Assembly (NCBI RefSeq): GCF_900113715.1 | Contig: NZ_FOQK01000002.1 | Location: 62,001-126,000, forward strand | DNA length: 64,000 nt | Reading direction: 5' to 3' | DNA from: Pseudoselenomonas ruminantium | GTDB lineage: Bacteria > Bacillota > Negativicutes > Selenomonadales > Selenomonadaceae | In this document: in pieces, positions 9,890-59,645 of the stretch | How the letters are laid out: each line of letters begins with the position of its first letter | Position numbering within the stretch: the first letter of the stretch is position 1 | The notes under the pieces: model-generated | What the model saw: the letters and a program-made list of their open reading frames with translations, nothing else | What the model was told of the DNA's origin: nothing | Database searches by the model: none | Program-made: the position numbers and the translations under genes

Positions 9890-11689
9890 TTATTTGATAA
9901 TTTTTTCAAGCTGATCGAGACACTGGGAGAATTTCCTGAAGGTGATGGCGAAGGGCTCGCGGCTCGTCATATCGACGCCGGCATCCTGCAGCAGCTTGAT
10001 GGAGTAGTCGCTGCCGCCGCTGGCGAGGAAGCCAAGATATGCCTGCTGGGCGGCTTCTCCCTGCGTGCGGACTTTCTCCGAAAGCGTCATGGCGGCCGCG
10101 TAGCCTGTCGCGTACTGGTAGACGTAGAACGGGCGGTAGAAGTGCGGGATGCGTGACCACTCGGCGCGCAGCTCGTCGTCAAGCACGACGCCATCGCCGT
10201 AGTATTTCCGGTTGAGATCCATCCAGATGCCCTCGAGCTTGTCGGCAGTCAGGGCTTCGCCGTTTTCAACGGCTTCGTGCGTGAGTTTTTCAAACTCCGC
10301 AAAGAGCACCTGGCGGAATACCGTCGTGCGGATCTGCTCGAGATAGAGGTTCAGATAATAGAGGCGTTCTTTTTCATCGGCATGTTTCAGCATGTATTCA
10401 AGCAGCAGGTTTTCGTTGGTGGTCGAGGCTACCTCGGCGCAGAAAATCGTGTATTCGGAATTGGTATAGTCCTGGTTCTTGGCACTGTAGAAGCTATGCA
10501 TGCTATGGCCCATTTCGTGTGCCAGCGTGGAAATCGCATCGTAGGTATCGTGCCAGCTCATGAGTACGAAAGGATGGACGCCGTAGACGCCCCAGGAATA
10601 GGCGCCGCTGCGCTTGCCTTCGTTTTCGAGACGGTCTACCCAGCCGCCGTCGAGGCCGGCAAAGAGATCCGTGAGATACTGCTGGCCAAGCGGTGCGAGT
10701 GCCGCTTTTAAGATATTGCGGGCTTCCTCGTAGGTATAGGGAGTCTGCGGCTTGTCGACAACCGGAACGTAGAGGTCATACATATGGAGCTCGCTGGCGC
10801 CGAGCAGTTTCTTTTTGAGTTCCATATAGCGATGGAGCTCGGGCAAAAACTCATGGGTGACGTTTATCGTCTGCTCGTAGACGCTTACGGGAATATTGCC
10901 GGCATCGAGGGCGGCTTCGAGCATCGAAGGGTATTTGCGCGTGGTGCTAATGAACTGGCTGCTCTTGACCGAGGAGCTGTAAAGGCTTGCAAAGGTATTG
11001 CGGTAGGAAAGATAGGTGGTAAAGAGCTTGTGGAAGGCATCGGCGCGGACTTTGCCGTCTTTGGAGCGGATGAACTGCATATAGCGGCTCTCGGAGAGCG
11101 TCGTGAGCTTGCCGTCTTCGCCCAGGGTGTCGGGGAACTTCATATCGGCATTGGTCATGACCGTGTAGGTGTTGCGGGTCGTGGCACGGATCTCGCCGGT
11201 GCGGGCGAGGAAGGCTTCCTGCTCGGTGGTCAGCACATGTTCTTTGCCCCGCAGCAGGTCCTGGAACCGGAAGCTGTATTTGGCAAGCCCCGGCAGCGTA
11301 TCTGCCATAGTGCGGAGCGTCTCTTCGGGCAGGGCCAAGAGCTCGGGCTCGATGAAGGCGCAGGCTGCTGAGGCCTTGTCGAGGAGCGGCAGGCAGCTTG
11401 CAGTATCGGCCTGGTATTCCTGATTGGCCGTGTCGGTATCGGCCAGCATGCGGGCGTAGGCAAAGACAGCGCTGAGGCTGATCTCCATCGTATCGACTGC
11501 GGTCAGGCAGTCTAAGAGCTGCTGCGGGTCAGCAAGCTTTCCGGCGAACTGCTGGATTTTTGCCAGCTGGCTTTCGATGGCGTCGCGGGCCTTCTGCCAG
11601 TCGGCGCGGGTGGCGAAGATATCGTCAAGGTGCCATTTGTCTGCGGCAGGGATGTCCTCGCGGCGGGCCAGTTTATTTTGACTTGTCAT
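9890..11689 (-). CDS. pepF: Oligoendopeptidase F
   Basis: 599-residue M3-family zinc endopeptidase that cleaves short peptides in the cytoplasm. The catalytic HEMGH of LAHEMGHSMHSF lies near residue 387, with the third ligand Glu in the following EVASTTNE segment, and RQVLFAEFE and FYVYQYATG further on. Length is typical. The start codon is part of a TTGAC-NN-GTCA palindrome: positions 11678-11689 read on the minus strand as ATGACAAGTCAA, giving M-T-S-Q. A promoter with a consensus TATAAT lies about 40 bp upstream. Confidence 0.95.
   Translation of the reverse strand: MTSQNKLARREDIPAADKWHLDDIFATRADWQKARDAIESQLAKIQQFAGKLADPQQLLDCLTAVDTMEISLSAVFAYARMLADTDTANQEYQADTASCLPLLDKASAACAFIEPELLALPEETLRTMADTLPGLAKYSFRFQDLLRGKEHVLTTEQEAFLARTGEIRATTRNTYTVMTNADMKFPDTLGEDGKLTTLSESRYMQFIRSKDGKVRADAFHKLFTTYLSYRNTFASLYSSSVKSSQFISTTRKYPSMLEAALDAGNIPVSVYEQTINVTHEFLPELHRYMELKKKLLGASELHMYDLYVPVVDKPQTPYTYEEARNILKAALAPLGQQYLTDLFAGLDGGWVDRLENEGKRSGAYSWGVYGVHPFVLMSWHDTYDAISTLAHEMGHSMHSFYSAKNQDYTNSEYTIFCAEVASTTNENLLLEYMLKHADEKERLYYLNLYLEQIRTTVFRQVLFAEFEKLTHEAVENGEALTADKLEGIWMDLNRKYYGDGVVLDDELRAEWSRIPHFYRPFYVYQYATGYAAAMTLSEKVRTQGEAAQQAYLGFLASGGSDYSIKLLQDAGVDMTSREPFAITFRKFSQCLDQLEKIIK
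11678..11689. repeat. TTGAC-NN-GTCA palindrome on the pepF start codon
   Basis: TTGACTTGTCAT on the plus strand; its complement begins with the pepF ATG. Confidence 0.85.
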
Positions 11690-11816: not shown

Positions 11817-13589
11817 TTGACAGAAGATATTTTGTGGCTGGGCATCAATGCGAAGTATTCGCACACGTCGCTGGCCATCCGTTATCTGCGCGAGGCAGTG
11901 CCAGGCTCGCGAATCTTGGAGCTTACGATTAATCATCAGCTGTTGGCGATGCTCGGGGAAATCTATGAGCAGCAGCCCAAAGTCCTTGGCATTTCGTGCT
12001 ATATCTGGAATATCGAGGTCGTAAAGCGGCTGCTGCGTCTTTTGCCCGCGGCCCTTCCCGATACGGTCATCATCTGCGGCGGCCCGGAAGTTTCCTATGG
12101 TACGAAAGAATTCATGCGGGAATTTCCGATGGTTGACTATGTCCTGCGCGGAGAAGGCGAAGCAGCAATCCGCGCTTTGACAAGTCAGCTTTTGACATGT
12201 CAATTTGACCGGTCAAAAGTCAATGCGGCGCTTGACCAGTCAGAAATCCGCGGCATTGCCTGGCGCAGCCAGGATGGTACGATTCAGGAAGGGCATGATG
12301 TGACGGTGGCGGATCTTGCGGATGTGCCGTTTGCCTATCGTGAGGAGGAGATGGCAGACATCCGGGAGCGCATCCTTTACTACGAGACGTCGCGGGGCTG
12401 TCCGTTTTCGTGCGCCTACTGCCTGTCGTGTGCGACGGCAGGCGTGCGGTATCTGCCGCTCACGCGGGTCTTTTCGGAGCTGGACTTTTTCGTGCGTCAT
12501 GATGTACGGCAGGTCAAATTTGTCGACCGCACGTTCAACGCCAAGAAAAAGCACTTTCTGCCAATCTTGAAATACCTTTTGGCTCTGCCGGATTCGTGCC
12601 GTACGAATTTCCATTTCGAGGTGGCCATCGATTATCTCGACGAAGAGGTACTGACGGTGCTTAGCCAGCTGCCGAAAGGGCGCGTGCAGCTCGAAATCGG
12701 CATCCAGTCGACGAATGAGCAGACGCTGAAAGCCGTTTCGCGGGTCAATCACTGGGAAGATATCCAGGCGCATATCGAGCGCATCATGCGCTTCCATAAT
12801 ATGCATCTGCATGTCGATCTCATCATCGGCCTGCCCGGAGAGGGAATGGCGTCGTTCCATCGCTCGTTCAACGATGTCTATGCCTTGCAGACCGATATGC
12901 TGCAGCTGGGCTTTCTGAAATTCCTCAAGGGGGCGGCGATGATGAATCTCGTGACGCCCTATGGTTATCAGTACATGCCGATGGCGCCCTATGAAGTGCT
13001 GGTGACCGATGCGCTAAGCTACGGGGAAATTCGCTGGTTCCATAGTTTTGAGATGGTCTTTGAACTATACTACAATGCCGGCCGGTGCCGTAAGACGGCT
13101 GGTTACCTGATCCGTGAGGCCGAGCAGGGCGATGCCTTTGCCTTCTGGCAGAGATTCACCGATTGGTGGGAGGAAAAGGGGTTCCATAAGATTGGCCACA
13201 GCACGAAAAATCTCTATGGCTACCTGCGGGACTTTGCGTTAGCGGCCTATGACCTGCCGGCAGAGCTGTTGGATAATCTTCTGCGCTATGATGCACTGCT
13301 CGCCGACGGCGGCAAAATCCGCCCTGAGAACCTAAACTGGAACCGCCAGGCGTATCAGGACATCACCGCCGACTTCTGGAAAGGCGCACCGAGCCGCGTG
13401 CGCGAGTATCTGCCGGATTATGAATTTACCAATTGGCGGGATGTGAATAAGAAATACCATATCGAGGTTTTTGACTACAATATGATATTGACCGGTCAAA
13501 ATTTGACCCGTCAGCAGACGGCCCTGCTGTTTGACTATACCGCCGACGAGCCGGTTCGCCAGGTGATTGAGCTGGGCGTTGACAAGTAA
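11817..13589 (+). CDS. B12-binding-domain radical SAM protein (DUF4080 type)
   Basis: 590 residues, TTG start at 11817 after AAGGAG. The N-terminal cobalamin-binding-like domain (1-150) contains VLGISCYIWNIEVVKRLL and VIICGGPEVSYG. The radical SAM core has RGCPFSCAYCLSC (Cys 195, 199, 202), then the IGIQSTN and HVDLIIGLPGEG segments. The C-terminal part matches the DUF4080 arrangement. Reaction unknown. Six palindromes of the TTGAC-NN-GTCA family are in the gene: four encode residues about 121-142 (LTSQ, LTCQ, FDRS, LDQS), between the B12-like and SAM domains; two encode LTGQNLTRQ near the C terminus. Both places look like tolerant surface loops. Confidence 0.88.
   Translation: MTEDILWLGINAKYSHTSLAIRYLREAVPGSRILELTINHQLLAMLGEIYEQQPKVLGISCYIWNIEVVKRLLRLLPAALPDTVIICGGPEVSYGTKEFMREFPMVDYVLRGEGEAAIRALTSQLLTCQFDRSKVNAALDQSEIRGIAWRSQDGTIQEGHDVTVADLADVPFAYREEEMADIRERILYYETSRGCPFSCAYCLSCATAGVRYLPLTRVFSELDFFVRHDVRQVKFVDRTFNAKKKHFLPILKYLLALPDSCRTNFHFEVAIDYLDEEVLTVLSQLPKGRVQLEIGIQSTNEQTLKAVSRVNHWEDIQAHIERIMRFHNMHLHVDLIIGLPGEGMASFHRSFNDVYALQTDMLQLGFLKFLKGAAMMNLVTPYGYQYMPMAPYEVLVTDALSYGEIRWFHSFEMVFELYYNAGRCRKTAGYLIREAEQGDAFAFWQRFTDWWEEKGFHKIGHSTKNLYGYLRDFALAAYDLPAELLDNLLRYDALLADGGKIRPENLNWNRQAYQDITADFWKGAPSRVREYLPDYEFTNWRDVNKKYHIEVFDYNMILTGQNLTRQQTALLFDYTADEPVRQVIELGVDK
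12177..12243. repeat. Cluster of four TTGAC-NN-GTCA palindromes
   Basis: TTGACAAGTCAG 12177, TTGACATGTCAA 12192, TTGACCGGTCAA 12205, TTGACCAGTCAG 12232. Four copies in 67 bp, all inside the radical SAM coding sequence and without breaking it. Confidence 0.93.
13488..13514. repeat. TTGAC-NN-GTCA palindrome pair near the radical SAM gene end
   Basis: TTGACCGGTCAA 13488 and TTGACCCGTCAG 13503, again 15 bp apart and read as LTGQ-N-LTRQ. Confidence 0.9.
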
Positions 13590-35978: not shown

Positions 35979-36002
35979 TTGACTTGTCATTTGACCGGTC
36001 AA
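35979..36002. repeat. Two abutting TTGAC-NN-GTCA palindromes in the riboswitch expression platform
   Basis: TTGACTTGTCAT 35979 and TTGACCGGTCAA 35991 directly adjoining, between the B12 box and the terminator hairpin. Confidence 0.92.
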
Positions 36003-37989: not shown

Positions 37990-39342
37990 GTGACGAACGC
38001 GATTCATCCGGTTGACCAGAAACTGCCGTTTTTGCGCACGCTTATCTACGGGGCTCAGCATGTGCTGGCCATGTATGCTGGTGCGGTAGCTGTGCCCTTG
38101 GTACTTGCCGGGGCCATCGGGCTTTCGACGGAACAGCTCATTTATCTCATCAATGCCGATCTCTTCACCTGTGGGATCGCTACGCTCGTGCAGGCATTGA
38201 GCATCCGCGGTGTCATCGGTGCGAAGCTGCCGATCGTGCAGGGCTGCACGTTTACGGCGGTCACGCCGATGATCATCATCGCGAACACCCATGGCGGCGG
38301 GGCAGCTGGCCTGCAGGTCGTCTATGGCTCGGCTATCTTTGCCGGCATTGCCTGCTTCATCATCAGCAATTTCTTCAGCAAGATGCTGCGGTTCTTCCCA
38401 CCGGTGGTCACGGGCTCGGTCATCACAATCATCGGTCTGTCGCTGCTGCCGGTAGCGGTCAACTGGATCACGGGGCCGAATCCTGCGGCTGCTGATTACT
38501 GTGACCCGTCAAACATCGCTCTGTCGCTGGCGGTGCTGGCAATCATCCTCTTCATCTACCGCACCTGCAAGGGCTTCCTGGGGCATATTTCAGTGCTGCT
38601 GGGCCTGGTGATCGGCACGGGGATTGCAGCTGCTTTCGGCATGGTGGATTTCCATGCCGTCAGCGAAGCGGCAGTGCTCGGTGTCACGACGCCCTTTGCC
38701 TTTGGCCTGCCGGTATTTGAGCCGGTATCGTGCCTCATCATGACGCTGGTCATGCTCGTGACGATGGCCGAGACTACGGGCGATGTCATGGCCATCAGCT
38801 CGATCGTCAAAAAGCCGATGACGGAGGAGATGCTCACCAAGGCCCTGCGGGCCGATGGTTTCTCGACGGCTCTGGGCGGTGTGTTCAATACCTTCCCGTA
38901 TACGGCTTTTGCCCAGAACATCGGCCTTATCAGCATGACGGGAATCCGCAGCCGCTATATCGTGGCGACCAGCGGCGTGTTGCTGATGATCCTCGGGCTC
39001 TTCCCGAAGCTGGCGGCTGTCGTCGCCTGCATCCCGACGATGGTGCTCGGCGGTGCTGGCCTGGCGATGTTCGGCATGGTAGCGGCAAGCGGCATGCAGG
39101 CGCTCTCGCAGGCGGATTTGCAGAAGAAGGGCAACTCGATGGTCGTGGCTATCAGCGTAGCTGTGGCGCTTATCCCGCTGGGGGTGCCGTCCTTCTACAG
39201 CCATTTCCCGCAGTGGGTGCAGCTCATCGGCAACAGCGGCATCACGATCGGCAGCATCATGGCCATTGTGCTCAACGTACTGCTCTGCGAGCGCAAGCCG
39301 AAGCAGAGTGAGTCGGAGCACGAGGCAGCTTTCGATCTTTAA
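37990..39342 (+). CDS. pbuX: Xanthine permease
   Basis: 450 residues from GTG 37990, which has GGGGGAA at a good distance; GTG 37975 is an alternative. Nucleobase:cation symporter-2 family with about 14 membrane segments. Signatures include LIYGAQHVLAMYAGAVAVPL (the QH motif of TM1), GAKLPIVQGCTFTAV, ETTGDVMAISSIV and the AFAQNIGLISMTGIRSRYIV region. Pairing with xpt indicates xanthine, perhaps also uric acid, as substrate. A terminator follows directly. Confidence 0.93.
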   Translation: MTNAIHPVDQKLPFLRTLIYGAQHVLAMYAGAVAVPLVLAGAIGLSTEQLIYLINADLFTCGIATLVQALSIRGVIGAKLPIVQGCTFTAVTPMIIIANTHGGGAAGLQVVYGSAIFAGIACFIISNFFSKMLRFFPPVVTGSVITIIGLSLLPVAVNWITGPNPAAADYCDPSNIALSLAVLAIILFIYRTCKGFLGHISVLLGLVIGTGIAAAFGMVDFHAVSEAAVLGVTTPFAFGLPVFEPVSCLIMTLVMLVTMAETTGDVMAISSIVKKPMTEEMLTKALRADGFSTALGGVFNTFPYTAFAQNIGLISMTGIRSRYIVATSGVLLMILGLFPKLAAVVACIPTMVLGGAGLAMFGMVAASGMQALSQADLQKKGNSMVVAISVAVALIPLGVPSFYSHFPQWVQLIGNSGITIGSIMAIVLNVLLCERKPKQSESEHEAAFDL

Positions 39343-42530: not shown

Positions 42531-43793
42531 TCAAGGCTCGCTCTGCCAGTGCCTGCCTTCTGCTATCGTGTCTTGGAGGCGCTGCTGGAGATCGCGGAAC
42601 CGGTAGAATCCGTCCGGAGTGGCAGTAAGGCCCTTTAGGCGCAGGGGGATGCGGGCCGGCGGCGCCTCGGTGGTCAGCGGCGTGCGCTGGCGCAGCTGCT
42701 GCGCGTTGGCGTAGATGAGGGACAGGGAGGCGTATTCTTCGCCGCCCTGTCCCTGACGTTTTTCGATGACGAACTTGGCGCCGATGGGGGTCTTGGCCTC
42801 GATGCTGTCCGGCAGAGTGTAGTCTTCAACGCCCAGCGCGGGCAGGACTTCTGCCAGGTTGACATCGTGGCCGCAGAGGAAGGTGATCTTGCGGTGGCTG
42901 TTGGCAAGCTCCTGCTCCATGACAGCAAGCAGCGGATAGGCCATGGCCTTGGCACAGGTGGGCTGAGAGAACAGCGAATTGATGCCGAGTTCCTTCAAGG
43001 CGGCGATGTCTTTCCAGTCCTCGCGGGTCAGCGGATGACCGAAGGCGGCGGCAAGGTCGTTTTCTTCCTCGTAATATTGCAGGGTCAGCGCATCGCTGGC
43101 TGGCACCAGGGCACCCCAGGGCGTGCGGAGACCTGGCCCGCCATTTTTTGCCGGGGCGATGTCTTTGCGGGTATAGTCAAGGGGACCATGCTGCTGGGCA
43201 TAGGTTGACCGGTTAAAGTCAAGGGTCTGCATGAGCAGCTGGCAAGAGCGCTGGCCGCGTTCCTGCAGGGGGCCTTCAAGTCCTGACCTGTCAAATTCGT
43301 TCCGCACTTGCTGGCGGAACCGCTCGCTGTCCGGCGGGGCAGGCAGGAATACGGGATCGGCCTCATTGACTTGCTGGTGGTGCTCGATGGCTACGTCAGC
43401 AAGGGGCAGCAGGCCGCTGGCAAAATAGCGTGCGGTGGCGATGGTGCGCTGGAACGAGTTGGCGTAGAACCGCACTTCATCGGCGGCAGGCGGCGTGTTC
43501 CGCTCCAGCAGTTTTTCTTCTTCCAGCCATTGGCGGAAATACTGGCCCATCAGCAGTTCCAGCTCGGCGCCGCGGGGCGAGAGCTCGCCGGGGGCGCACT
43601 GCCAGGCGAACCAGGCATGGGGGGTGAGCTTGGCGAGGGTGGAATCACGTCCGGCCAAGGGGGCGCGGATATTGTGGCGGCTGAGGATAAGCACCTGCTT
43701 GAGCGGATAATCGGCTTTGCCGGCCGCCTGGCTGGCAGCTGGCAAAAGGAGCAGCAGGCAGAGGCTGAGGACAGGCAAGAGTTTCTTTTCCAT
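42531..43793 (-). CDS. Periplasmic histidine acid phosphatase, glucose-1-phosphatase-like
   Basis: 420 residues from the ATG at 43793. A signal peptide LLPVLSLCLLLLLPAASQAA directs export. The catalytic motif SRHNIRAPLAG corresponds to SRHNLRAPLA of E. coli Agp (RHGxRxP family), and the proton donor is in CGHDVNLAEVL, followed by TPIGAKFVIEKR as in Agp. Other members are phytases, so phytate cleavage cannot be excluded. TTGAC-type palindromes in the gene write LDFNRST and FDRSG (43205-43216, one mismatch, and 43283-43294). No partner gene is close. Confidence 0.88.
   Translation of the reverse strand: MEKKLLPVLSLCLLLLLPAASQAAGKADYPLKQVLILSRHNIRAPLAGRDSTLAKLTPHAWFAWQCAPGELSPRGAELELLMGQYFRQWLEEEKLLERNTPPAADEVRFYANSFQRTIATARYFASGLLPLADVAIEHHQQVNEADPVFLPAPPDSERFRQQVRNEFDRSGLEGPLQERGQRSCQLLMQTLDFNRSTYAQQHGPLDYTRKDIAPAKNGGPGLRTPWGALVPASDALTLQYYEEENDLAAAFGHPLTREDWKDIAALKELGINSLFSQPTCAKAMAYPLLAVMEQELANSHRKITFLCGHDVNLAEVLPALGVEDYTLPDSIEAKTPIGAKFVIEKRQGQGGEEYASLSLIYANAQQLRQRTPLTTEAPPARIPLRLKGLTATPDGFYRFRDLQQRLQDTIAEGRHWQSEP
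43205..43294. repeat. TTGAC-NN-GTCAA palindromes in the phosphatase gene
   Basis: TTGACCGGTTAA 43205 (one mismatch) and CTGACCTGTCAA 43283. Confidence 0.7.
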
Positions 43794-49860: not shown

Positions 49861-49922
49861 GGCAAAAATGACCGGTCAGACTGGCACCGCTTGACGCGCC
49901 AATCTGACCGGTCATTTTTGCC
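49861..49922. terminator. ttdAB terminator built from the palindrome family
   Basis: A perfect 20-bp inverted repeat, 49861-49880 and 49903-49922. Each arm contains a whole TGACCGGTCA (49869-49878, 49905-49914), and the loop holds TTGACGCGCCAA, a one-mismatch copy. TTTTTGCC follows the core. Confidence 0.9.
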
Positions 49923-52313: not shown

Positions 52314-52650
52314 TCTGGCAATGACCTTTGCCCAGGCAGAAAAAGGCAGCTGGCATATCTGGCAGCTGGCAGGAAGGCTGGACCGCGCGACAGCAGCGCA
52401 GGTACAGGCAGAAGGTGAGACGCTGCTGCAGCAGACAGACCGGCTGGCGATTGACTTGTCAGAGCTTGCTTATATTTCCAGTGCGGGAATCCGGGTATTG
52501 CTGCTGCTGGCCAAGCAGGCAGAGGATGCGTCGCAGCCTTTCTGCCTGTGCTCCCCGCAGGGTATCGTGCGGGAGGTGCTGGAAATATCCCGGATGGATA
52601 TGTTCCTCTCCATCTGCCCGTCTGTGGATGCCTTGGAAGAAGGTGCATGA
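52306..52650 (+). CDS. STAS-domain anti-sigma-factor antagonist-like protein
   Basis: 114 residues from ATG 52306. The STAS core has GRLDRATAAQVQAEGETLL and LAIDLSELAYISSAGIRVLLLLAKQA, where the serine in YISSAGI is the expected phosphorylation site. It overlaps the SpoIIE-type phosphatase gene, its likely enzyme. Residues I-D-L-S-E are written by a TTGAC-type palindrome at 52451. After the stop a short ATG frame (52651-52671) ends at once, so an RsbW-like kinase, if ever present, is missing. Confidence 0.88.
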   Translation: MTDLAMTFAQAEKGSWHIWQLAGRLDRATAAQVQAEGETLLQQTDRLAIDLSELAYISSAGIRVLLLLAKQAEDASQPFCLCSPQGIVREVLEISRMDMFLSICPSVDALEEGA

Positions 52651-52792: not shown

Positions 52793-53701
52793 TTATTGCA
52801 GAGCTTCTTTGAGCGTTTCCATATTCTTGCGCATGGTCGTAAGGTAGGCGTCCATGGCAGCTTCGTTGGCCTCACCAGTCACTACCGGGTCAAGGGTATA
52901 GATCTTGGCTCCGGTTTCGCGGGCGATGGTCTGAGCAGCGGCAGGGGAATACTGCGGCTCGGTGAACAGGACTTTGGCTGTGAGGGGCTTGACCTGTTCG
53001 ATGACGGCCTGCAGCTCGGAGGGGGTAGGTTCCGTGCCCGGCTCACGTTCGATGACCGTCAGGATGTGCAGGCCGAATTCCTTGGCAAAATACGGGAAGG
53101 CCTCATGGAAGGTCACGATGTCCTTATGGGGGACGTTGTCGAGGGTTTCGTGCATTTCCTTTTTGAGGGCCTCGAGCTTCTGGATATAGGCATCGGCATT
53201 GGCCTGATAGGCATCAGCGTGCTTCGGGTCAGCTTCCTTCAGCTGGGCGGTGATGTTCTTGACCTGTTCGATGCTCGACGTGATGCTGAGCCAGACGTGC
53301 GGGTTCTCCTCATCGCCATCTTTCAGCAATTCGATGCCTTTTGACGCGTCAATCACCTTGAGGTCCTTCTGTTCCTTGATGACCTTGCCGAGGAAGTTTT
53401 CCATGCCAGCACCGTTGGCGATGAGGGCATCGGCCTTCTCCAGGGTCTTCATATCCTCGGTGGTCAGCTGGTAGTCATGCAGGCAGCCGGTCTGCGGCTT
53501 GGTCATATTGGTGACCGTGACGCCGTCAATGCCCTGGGTGATGTTGATGGCGTCGATGTACATGGGATAAAAGGTAGTGACAATGTGGAAGCTGCCGTCC
53601 TTGGCGGCGTCCGGTGAAGAGCTCGTGCTGCCCGCGCCACAGCCGGTGAGCATCAGGCAGAAGGCGGCGAGCAGGCAGAAAAACGAAGTTTTGCATTTCA
53701 A
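52793..53701 (-). CDS. znuA: Zinc ABC transporter substrate-binding lipoprotein
   Basis: 302 residues. Lipoprotein signal ending LTGC, then a cluster A-1 metal-binding protein: FHIVTTFYPMYIDAINITQ, CLHDYQLTTEDMKTLEKADALIANGAGMENF with a metal His, DEENPHVWLSITSS with a second, TFHEAFPYFAKEFGL with a third, and TEPQYSPAAAQTIARETGAKIYTLDPVV. Zinc is the likely ligand given the Zur gene upstream; manganese is possible. No ATPase or permease gene is adjacent, so the rest of the transporter is elsewhere. Confidence 0.9.
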   Translation of the reverse strand: MKCKTSFFCLLAAFCLMLTGCGAGSTSSSPDAAKDGSFHIVTTFYPMYIDAINITQGIDGVTVTNMTKPQTGCLHDYQLTTEDMKTLEKADALIANGAGMENFLGKVIKEQKDLKVIDASKGIELLKDGDEENPHVWLSITSSIEQVKNITAQLKEADPKHADAYQANADAYIQKLEALKKEMHETLDNVPHKDIVTFHEAFPYFAKEFGLHILTVIEREPGTEPTPSELQAVIEQVKPLTAKVLFTEPQYSPAAAQTIARETGAKIYTLDPVVTGEANEAAMDAYLTTMRKNMETLKEALQ

Positions 53702-53774: not shown

Positions 53775-53819
53775 AATGACAAGAGCAGTTTGATAATTTT
53801 TATCATTGCTCTTGTCATT
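53775..53819 (-). terminator. Terminator of zur
   Basis: AATGACAAGAGCA / TGCTCTTGTCATT with an inner TGATAA/TTATCA pair. On the minus strand it is followed by TTTATTTT. Confidence 0.85.
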
Positions 53820-53850
53820 GACTTGTCAACGCTTGCCCTTGACTTGTCAA
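53818..53850. repeat. Two TTGACTTGTCAA palindromes at the end of zur
   Basis: Identical copies at 53818 and 53839, between the zur stop codon and its terminator; the second touches the final codon. Confidence 0.9.
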
Positions 53851-55274: not shown

Positions 55275-55300
55275 TTGACTGGTCAAGTTTGACCGGTCAA
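55275..55300. repeat. TTGAC-NN-GTCAA pair between ushA remnant and FAD gene
   Basis: TTGACTGGTCAA 55275 and TTGACCGGTCAA 55289, 14 bp apart, followed by seven Ts; may serve as a terminator. Confidence 0.9.
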
Positions 55301-59625: not shown

Positions 59626-59645
59626 GCGGTCAATTGACAAGTCAA
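59622..59645. repeat. Abutting palindromes ahead of the third FAD gene
   Basis: TTGAGCGGTCAA 59622 (one mismatch) and TTGACAAGTCAA 59634, adjoining without gap, ending 20 bp before the start codon. Confidence 0.85.

What the first reader, a model, noticed from the sequence alone, without database searches (positions are those of the whole stretch)
12177..12243. Palindromes inserted in frame inside a radical SAM protein
Four copies in 67 bp encode LTSQ-L-LTCQ-FDRS...LDQS at residues about 121-142, exactly between two folded domains. Of the three frames, one gives LTxQ, one gives (F/L)D(R/Q)S and the third would contain a TGA stop; only the two open frames are found in coding sequences. The same peptides appear in the YgjP-like protein, PflA and the phosphatase.
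Basis: partly seen in the sequence, partly recalled or inferred. Interest (0 to 1): 0.75.

Follow-up and report, generated by a model that had tools for sequence, protein, structure and literature searches.

The report
Terminus-half DNA palindromes in Selenomonas
The repeated palindromes inside this gene are not inserted pieces but copies of a short DNA mark that has evolved about 200 times in these rumen bacteria, mainly in the half of the chromosome copied last, so they probably are docking sites for an unknown protein that organises or positions that half.

Summary
The four palindromes exist as described (core TGACNNGTCA, full form TTGACNNGTCAA), far above chance, and only two reading frames are used. 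The insertion interpretation is wrong: across 20 orthologues the stretch has no gap, and site-free relatives have the same protein length there, so the sites arose by base substitution. Arms are conserved while the two central bases drift, so selection acts on DNA.

The genome has 177 full copies against 1 for the reversed-motif control. The motif is nearly confined to this Selenomonas group: 19 of 22 genus genomes have 44-214 copies; of 237 class genomes outside the genus, one exceeds 14.

The main discovery is position. In two chromosome-sized contigs the sites concentrate in the half around the replication terminus (GC skew; opposite ParB) and are sparser near the origin, also in intergenic DNA. 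Two draft genomes agree. Neighbouring sites sit mostly 12-15 bp apart.

Best reading: binding sites of an unidentified dimeric protein marking the terminus half. They work like MatP/matS but are not members: no MatP in 22 genomes, a different site, more copies, tandem arrays. No Noc paralogue in six site-rich genomes. The binder and its function remain inferred.

The parts
12177..12188 (.). palindrome copy 1, TTGACAAGTCAG (core 12178-12187), clade A only
12192..12203 (.). palindrome copy 2, TTGACATGTCAA; centre is AT, TT, TG or AA among relatives; clade A only
12205..12216 (.). palindrome copy 3, TTGACCGGTCAA; position shared by clades A and B
12219..12223 (.). lone half-site GTCAA; GTCA is kept in all 17 site-bearing orthologues, GTCAA in 15 (G149 and G150 read GTCAG)
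12232..12243 (.). palindrome copy 4, TTGACCAGTCAG (core 12233-12242); position shared by clades A and B
13488..13514 (.). two more palindromes near the 3' end of the same gene (cores 13489, 13504, spacing 15)
11817..13589 (+). host gene: B12-binding radical SAM protein with DUF4080 domain, 590 aa
6869..6895 (.). tandem pair outside any ORF of 80 aa or more, spacing 15
11679..11688 (.). single core over the start codon of an oligopeptidase F-type gene (MTSQ)
35980..36002 (.). tandem pair in a 104-aa ORF, spacing 12
38502..38511 (.). single core in a Xan_ur_permease gene
43284..43293 (.). single core in a histidine phosphatase gene (FDRS)
49869..49914 (.). two cores at the N-terminus of a 224-aa ORF without Pfam match, spacing 36
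52452..52461 (.). single core in a STAS-domain gene
53341..53352 (.). single palindrome in a ZnuA-type gene
53818..53850 (.). tandem pair in a 199-aa ORF without Pfam match, spacing 21
55275..55300 (.). tandem pair outside any ORF of 80 aa or more, spacing 14
59634..59645 (.). single palindrome outside any ORF of 80 aa or more

Best explanation
TTGACNNGTCAA is the binding site of a sequence-specific dimeric DNA-binding protein that marks the terminus half of the Selenomonas chromosome. About 50-200 sites per genome, often in tandem pairs and triplets 12-15 bp apart that suggest neighbouring dimers touch, arose and are kept by base substitution, in genes only in the two frames and places the protein tolerates. 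The bound array probably organises the late-replicating half (terminus domain, SMC exclusion or unloading) and/or ties it to the division site, as matS/MatP does in enterics and ZapT in Caulobacter. Shown here: over-representation, DNA-level conservation, substitution origin, tandem spacing, terminus-half concentration. Inferred: a dimeric binder, cooperative binding, and the organising or division role. The binder is unidentified.
For: Over-representation; most enriched gapped palindrome in the G146 sample and the window. Substitution origin. Arms kept in 101 of 108 cases versus 765 of 1039 non-palindromic TGAC/GTCA tetramers, p = 4.9e-7; centre positions 78 and 82%, arm positions 94-100%. 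G146 (one contig, 40 stretches, all counted): 91 cores in 23 stretches within 0.8 Mb of the skew maximum, 14 in the 17 others, p = 1.4e-5 (the 0.8-Mb limit was chosen). With the terminus set only by ParB's antipode and sites collapsed to clusters: 53 of 68 in that half, p = 4e-6, density 150, 117, 81, 33, 33 per Mb with distance. Origin supported by ParB at 507 kb and parS at 494-508 kb. G143: 62 of 74 collapsed sites in the half opposite ParB; if all 19 unlisted sites were in the origin half, p = 0.0017. Clade A draft G150: a 685-kb contig with the skew switch has 124 cores in 400 kb sampled and 65 of the genome's 188 full sites. Window genome: 28 cores in 8 stretches mapped under 0.8 Mb from ter, 2 in 9 mapped at or beyond. 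Intergenic DNA shows the same bias: 0.654 versus 0.148 per kb in G146, 0.284 versus 0 in G143. Orthologue pairs lying in different halves: 4 of 22 have any site, always in the terminus copy (8 sites versus 0). Spacing 12-15 bp in 71 of 101 neighbours within 60 bp.
Against: No binder found. Bias is graded, not absolute: G146 has 16 full sites below 1.0 Mb, more than the 7 of the reversed motif in its whole genome, and orthologue pairs both in the origin half hold some cores. The 20-stretch core sample of G143 alone is not significant by rank correlation (25 versus 8, Spearman p = 0.26). Three G000 stretches mapped under 0.8 Mb have no site (L163, L171 and the short L176). The relocation test rests on 4 informative pairs, one of them (0.81 Mb) just over the limit, so it is not significant alone. 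The conservation test counts the same sites in several relatives and takes sites from one genome. No dif site was recognised. Copy number far exceeds matS, and three genus members nearly lack the motif, so the system is dispensable or replaceable. No Hi-C, ChIP or microscopy.
Confidence: 0.6

Rival explanations
1. A short mobile palindromic element inserted in frame into genes (first reader; like Rickettsia palindromic elements, recalled).
For: Same short sequence at many places and in proteins, with copy number differing between relatives.
Against: No gap in the stretch across 20 orthologues; site-free orthologues have equal length; centres vary at conserved sites; over 162 sites only weak base preferences are shared beyond the 12 bp.
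Confidence: 0.02
2. Operators of an ordinary transcription factor with a large regulon.
For: Per kb, sites are denser between genes than inside them. In G150 a MarR-like ORF (three sites) and a TetR-like ORF (two) have sites just upstream.
Against: 207 of 317 cores lie inside ORFs. Spacers between convergent genes, which should lack promoters, are as rich in G150 (2.06 per kb convergent, 1.50 divergent, 1.37 tandem) and G146 (0.63, 0.36, 0.47); the other sets are too small or uneven, and in the sampled G000 contig heads 9 of 10 are divergent. A regulon does not predict terminus-half concentration.
Confidence: 0.1
3. An iterated sequence maintained by drive or DNA exchange, like HIP1 of cyanobacteria or DNA-uptake signals, with no positional role.
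For: Clade-specific short palindrome, mostly in genes, made by substitution.
Against: Terminus-half concentration also in intergenic DNA; tandem 12-15 bp packing; uptake signals are usually non-palindromic and spread widely (recalled).
Confidence: 0.12
4. Nucleoid-occlusion-type sites (Noc or SlmA kind).
For: Scattered palindromes of similar size, with an uneven ori-ter distribution (PMC4726725, passages).
Against: Noc and SlmA sites are under-represented in Ter, these are enriched there; six site-rich genomes have only one ParB_N-domain match, the ParB that the site-poor genomes also have. SlmA-like TetR proteins were not searched.
Confidence: 0.06

Closest known systems
matS sites of MatP (E. 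coli Ter macrodomain)
   Same: Short gapped palindrome with similar half-sites (E. coli GTGACATTGTCAC; a P. thracensis variant GTTACNNNGTAAC, PMC8669397 passages; here TTGAC..GTCAA), concentrated in the terminus region.
   Different: Two-base, not three-base, centre; outer base differs; 44-214 full copies over about half the chromosome instead of 23 in 800 kb (PMC3330122 abstract); tandem arrays; no MatP family member in 22 genomes.
ZapT of Caulobacter crescentus
   Same: Terminus-biased binding sites mostly within open reading frames (PMC7188993, passages).
   Different: ZapT has 10 ChIP positions and no consensus motif was found; it is a MerR-family protein; whether Selenomonas has a counterpart was not tested.
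Noc (NBS) and SlmA (SBS) nucleoid-occlusion sites
   Same: Scattered palindromes with a strongly uneven ori-ter distribution.
   Different: The distribution is the reverse: NBS and SBS are under-represented in Ter (PMC4726725, passages).
HIP1 of cyanobacteria
   Same: A short palindrome highly repeated in a clade.
   Different: HIP1 is GCGATCGC, linked to methyltransferases (PMC4390886, start of abstract in search listing); no positional concentration known to me (recalled).

Membership tests
MatP/matS | MatP protein in the genome | tested here: not met
   PF06303 found in 0 of 22 genus genomes (15 of them at least 90% complete); the E. coli control rings
MatP/matS | site GTGAC-NNN-GTCAC type, 13 bp | tested here: not met
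   the enriched palindrome has a two-base centre and outer T/A; matS letters from PMC8669397 passages
MatP/matS | sites concentrated around the replication terminus | tested here: met
   graded rather than exclusive
MatP/matS | protein bound to sites organises Ter and contacts divisome or SMC | not testable with these tools
   needs ChIP, Hi-C or microscopy
Noc nucleoid occlusion | ParB paralogue besides ParB | tested here: not met
   G000, G149, G150, G157, G158 and G160 have one PF02195 match each; some other genomes have further, weak matches
Noc nucleoid occlusion | sites under-represented in Ter | tested here: not met
SlmA nucleoid occlusion | SlmA-type TetR protein | not tested
   no such search was run
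KOPS | polar, strand-biased motif | tested here: not met
   the motif is its own reverse complement (read directly; searches find equal counts on both strands)
HIP1-type iterated palindrome | cognate methyltransferase | not tested
   no methyltransferase search was run
inserted palindromic element | extra bases relative to empty orthologue | tested here: not met
   no gap in the stretch across 20 orthologues
transcription-factor operator | promoter location | tested here: not met
   65% in ORFs; convergent spacers as rich as divergent in G150 and G146, not in the small G000 set

The most novel reading that the evidence does not exclude
Selenomonas has an undescribed terminus-organising system, outside the lineages of MatP and ZapT, in which an unknown protein coats tandem TTGACNNGTCAA arrays across the last-replicated half of the chromosome; it arose or was lost several times within one family, so terminus-marking codes can be written into coding DNA and replaced quickly in evolution.
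Probability: 0.5. Interest if true: 0.88.

Novelty: new variant of a known kind. Interest (0 to 1): 0.8.

Why it matters
Terminus organisers are known in few lineages; [quoted passage not shown] A genus-level, densely repeated terminus mark in Selenomonas gives a direct handle (known DNA bait, site-poor relatives for contrast) to find an independent system, and shows a chromosome-scale positional code shaping protein sequences: here helices of a radical SAM enzyme.

Tried and rejected
Insertion: rejected by alignment. RNA hairpin role: considered and dropped, since arms keep exact letters while the centre varies, as for a protein site; not tested by folding. A different palindrome in site-poor relatives: none stood out in 200 kb of G162 and 199.7 kb of G144, a limited sample. 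dif consensus (recalled) as terminus marker: only scattered two-mismatch hits, little better than the reversed pattern. ParB/Noc paralogue as binder: rejected. Gene neighbours of parAB in five loci (two site-poor, three site-rich), read by eye: no extra DNA-binding gene seen in the site-rich ones. The reversed-motif excess in G177 (20 copies) is one identical 12-mer AACTGCGCAGTT spread over the chromosome, apparently unrelated. Autoregulated candidate binder: 17 ORFs of 330 aa or less have at least two sites upstream; a TetR-like and a MarR-like ORF in G150 stand out, but neither has a homologue (tblastn E 1e-15) in any other sequence held, and the family labels are by eye, so they are weak leads. 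One search stopped with an error after printing most of its table; the rest was redone. One search printed nothing through an index mistake and was redone.

Literature: searches of the open PMC library. None of six spellings of the motif occurs. One search (Selenomonas ruminantium with palindrom) listed all 8 of its papers, none of them on such a site by title. Searches matched 199 and 351 papers on looser terms, of which 8 and 5 were listed; none of those listed mentions Negativicutes or Selenomonas. Subscription papers are not covered.

Full report
What is there. Window 11817-13589 (+) encodes a 590-aa protein with a B12-binding domain (8-121), a radical SAM domain (189-352) and DUF4080 (382-572). 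Its codons about 121-142 carry four TGACNNGTCA cores (12178, 12193, 12206, 12233), and two more lie near the gene's end (13489, 13504). The best orthologues are Selenomonas (L005-L014, 76-94% identity), then Clostridium and other Bacillota at 33-40% (L015-L021), so the window is from the Selenomonas ruminantium group. The chromosome of G143, 3,003,680 bp, has the length I recall for strain TAM6421; that name is not tested.

More than chance. TTGACNNGTCAA: 13 in the window, 0.03 expected; 177 in the genome against 1 for the pattern read backwards. TGACNNGTCA: 24 against 0.59 expected; genome 421 against 18. A scan of gapped palindromes (half-sites of 4 and 5, gaps 0-8) puts this motif first in the G146 sample and the window. 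In G143 it is first for half-site 4, and for half-site 5 it is second to TGACCGGTCA, its own variant with centre CG. Flanks beyond the 12 bp carry only weak A/T preference over 162 sites, and centres favour AA/TT, CG, AT and CA/TG.

Not inserted. All 22 genus genomes have a match to the protein, 20 of them an orthologue (G151 and G155 gave only weak paralogous matches). The codon alignment of these 20 has no gap between the first and last site column of the stretch (421-523); one codon differs in length further downstream. Seventeen carry sites there, three (G162, G161, G144) do not, with the same length (four-sequence view). Columns 449 and 476 carry sites in both major clades, 421 and 436 only in clade A (seven genomes), 514 only in clade B (nine of ten). 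Sites near the 3' end come and go (columns 1735, 1753, 1768, 1816; one at 1496). At fixed sites the central two bases differ between species. So sites form by point substitution. The AlphaFold model (15 sequences, mean pLDDT 85.2) makes residues 115-127 and 132-141 helices with block pLDDT 86-93, so the sites recode existing helices rather than add a loop.

Selection on DNA. Aligning G000 sequences to six clade A relatives (110,792 aligned bases, 90.4% identical), palindrome arms are kept in 101 of 108 cases against 765 of 1039 for the same tetramers outside palindromes (Fisher p = 4.9e-7). Arm positions are 94-100% identical, centres 78 and 82%; the bases just outside the core (90 and 94%) are also well kept. 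Sites are taken from G000 and the same site can count in several relatives, so the cases are not independent. In ORFs only the two stop-free phases occur, 207 of 207.

Where it occurs. In the genus, 19 of 22 genomes (the window's own included) have 44-214 full copies, and G144, G161 and G162 have 2, 6 and 4. Of 252 genomes of the class at 90% completeness or more, 15 are of the genus; of the other 237 only G126 (another genus, 53 copies) exceeds 14. On the radical SAM tree G161 and G162 fall in an unresolved fork with site-bearing genomes, while G126 sits outside beside G127, which has 1 copy (several open or weakly supported forks and long branches). So repeated gains or losses are likely. 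The genes of G126, G127 and G172 carry no core, nor do the seven distant loci L015-L021; the other five outgroup orthologues (L211-L215) were not scanned for sites.

Position on the chromosome. G146 is one contig of 2,831,713 bp. In 40 evenly spaced 20-kb stretches, GC skew turns positive between 0.51 and 0.56 Mb and negative between 1.77 and 1.82 Mb. ParB is at 507 kb, and three exact parS sites plus one near-match lie at 494-508 kb and nowhere else in the sample (parS letters recalled), so the origin is there. The 105 cores have a circular mean at 1.946 Mb, near the antipode. Counted as 68 clusters, 53 fall in the half opposite ParB (20 of 40 stretches, p = 4e-6), with density 150, 117, 81, 33 and 33 clusters per Mb in successive 0.3-Mb steps away from the antipode. 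The listing of the first 100 of 214 full sites gives 16 below 1.0 Mb and 84 between 1.03 and 1.76 Mb.

Replication of the result. G143 has ParB at 2.986 Mb; 86 of its 105 full sites are listed, three of them below 750 kb. They depart from uniform over 0-2.7 Mb (73 clusters, KS p = 1.1e-4). With neighbours thinned to 74, 62 are in the half opposite ParB; if all 19 unlisted ones were in the origin half, p = 0.0017. Against this, the smaller core sample of G143 gives 25 versus 8 with a non-significant rank correlation (p = 0.26). In clade A, the 685-kb contig of G150 spans the skew switch and has 124 cores in the 400 kb sampled and 65 of the genome's 188 full sites. Of 20 G000 stretches, one was masked and two had no mapped orthologue; of the remaining 17, placed by 1-10 orthologues each, eight with median under 0.8 Mb from ter hold 28 cores (three of them none) and nine at or beyond hold 2. 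The window maps to about 0.4 Mb from ter, mostly through G150. Other G143 replicons: 5 cores, 1 full, in 157.6 kb readable.

Not gene content. The bias holds in intergenic DNA: G146 31 cores in 47.4 kb versus 5 in 33.8 kb, G143 7 in 24.6 kb versus 0 in 22.6 kb. Of 22 reciprocal-best orthologue pairs lying in different halves (0.8-Mb rule, 100-bp flanks included), four have any core, always in the terminus copy (8 versus 0). Eighteen have none, many are near-identical or just over the limit, and pairs both in the origin half do hold some cores, so this test only points the same way.

Arrays. Of 101 neighbour spacings up to 60 bp over four genomes' samples (some orthologous arrays may be counted more than once), 71 are 12-15 bp. 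This close packing points to contacts between adjacent dimers (inference).

How it most likely works. A protein dimer reads TTGAC on each side of a two-base gap; arrays give avidity; the map of sites tells the cell which DNA is terminus-proximal. By analogy with MatP (MukBEF is unloaded at matS, PMC8669397 passages; MatP links Ter to the Z-ring through ZapB, PMC7188993 passages) I infer terminus organisation or division coupling. MatP itself is absent (0 of 22, E. coli control positive), and six site-rich genomes have no second ParB-family protein. The binder is not identified.

Verdict. It works like matS on present evidence of distribution, but fails MatP/matS membership on protein and site.

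Noticed in passing
G177:C1 (L198-L207 and further places): Twenty identical copies of AACTGCGCAGTT spread over this other genus's chromosome; probably an unrelated dispersed repeat.
   Followed up: partly
L147:9692-10174 and upstream (G150): MarR-like gene (label by eye) with three tandem sites and a fourth imperfect one just before a promoter-like -10 box; a weak candidate for the binder.
   Followed up: partly
L145:15632-16294 and upstream (G150): TetR-like gene (label by eye) with two abutting sites upstream.
   Followed up: partly
G126 (genus g17): 53 copies of the motif in a different genus whose neighbour on the tree, G127, has 1.
   Followed up: partly
L101, L102, L104 (G143 1.35-1.37, 1.50-1.52 and 1.80-1.82 Mb): Low-GC stretches near the terminus of G143 with 1, 1 and 0 cores; perhaps recently acquired DNA that has not yet gained sites.
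   Followed up: no
G146 and G143 samples: CGATATCG is also in excess (47 against 10.5 expected; 24 against 5.9), cause unknown.
   Followed up: no
window 12219-12223: A lone half-site GTCAA kept beside the palindromes; lone half-sites are about twice as dense as background 10-30 bp from sites.
   Followed up: partly
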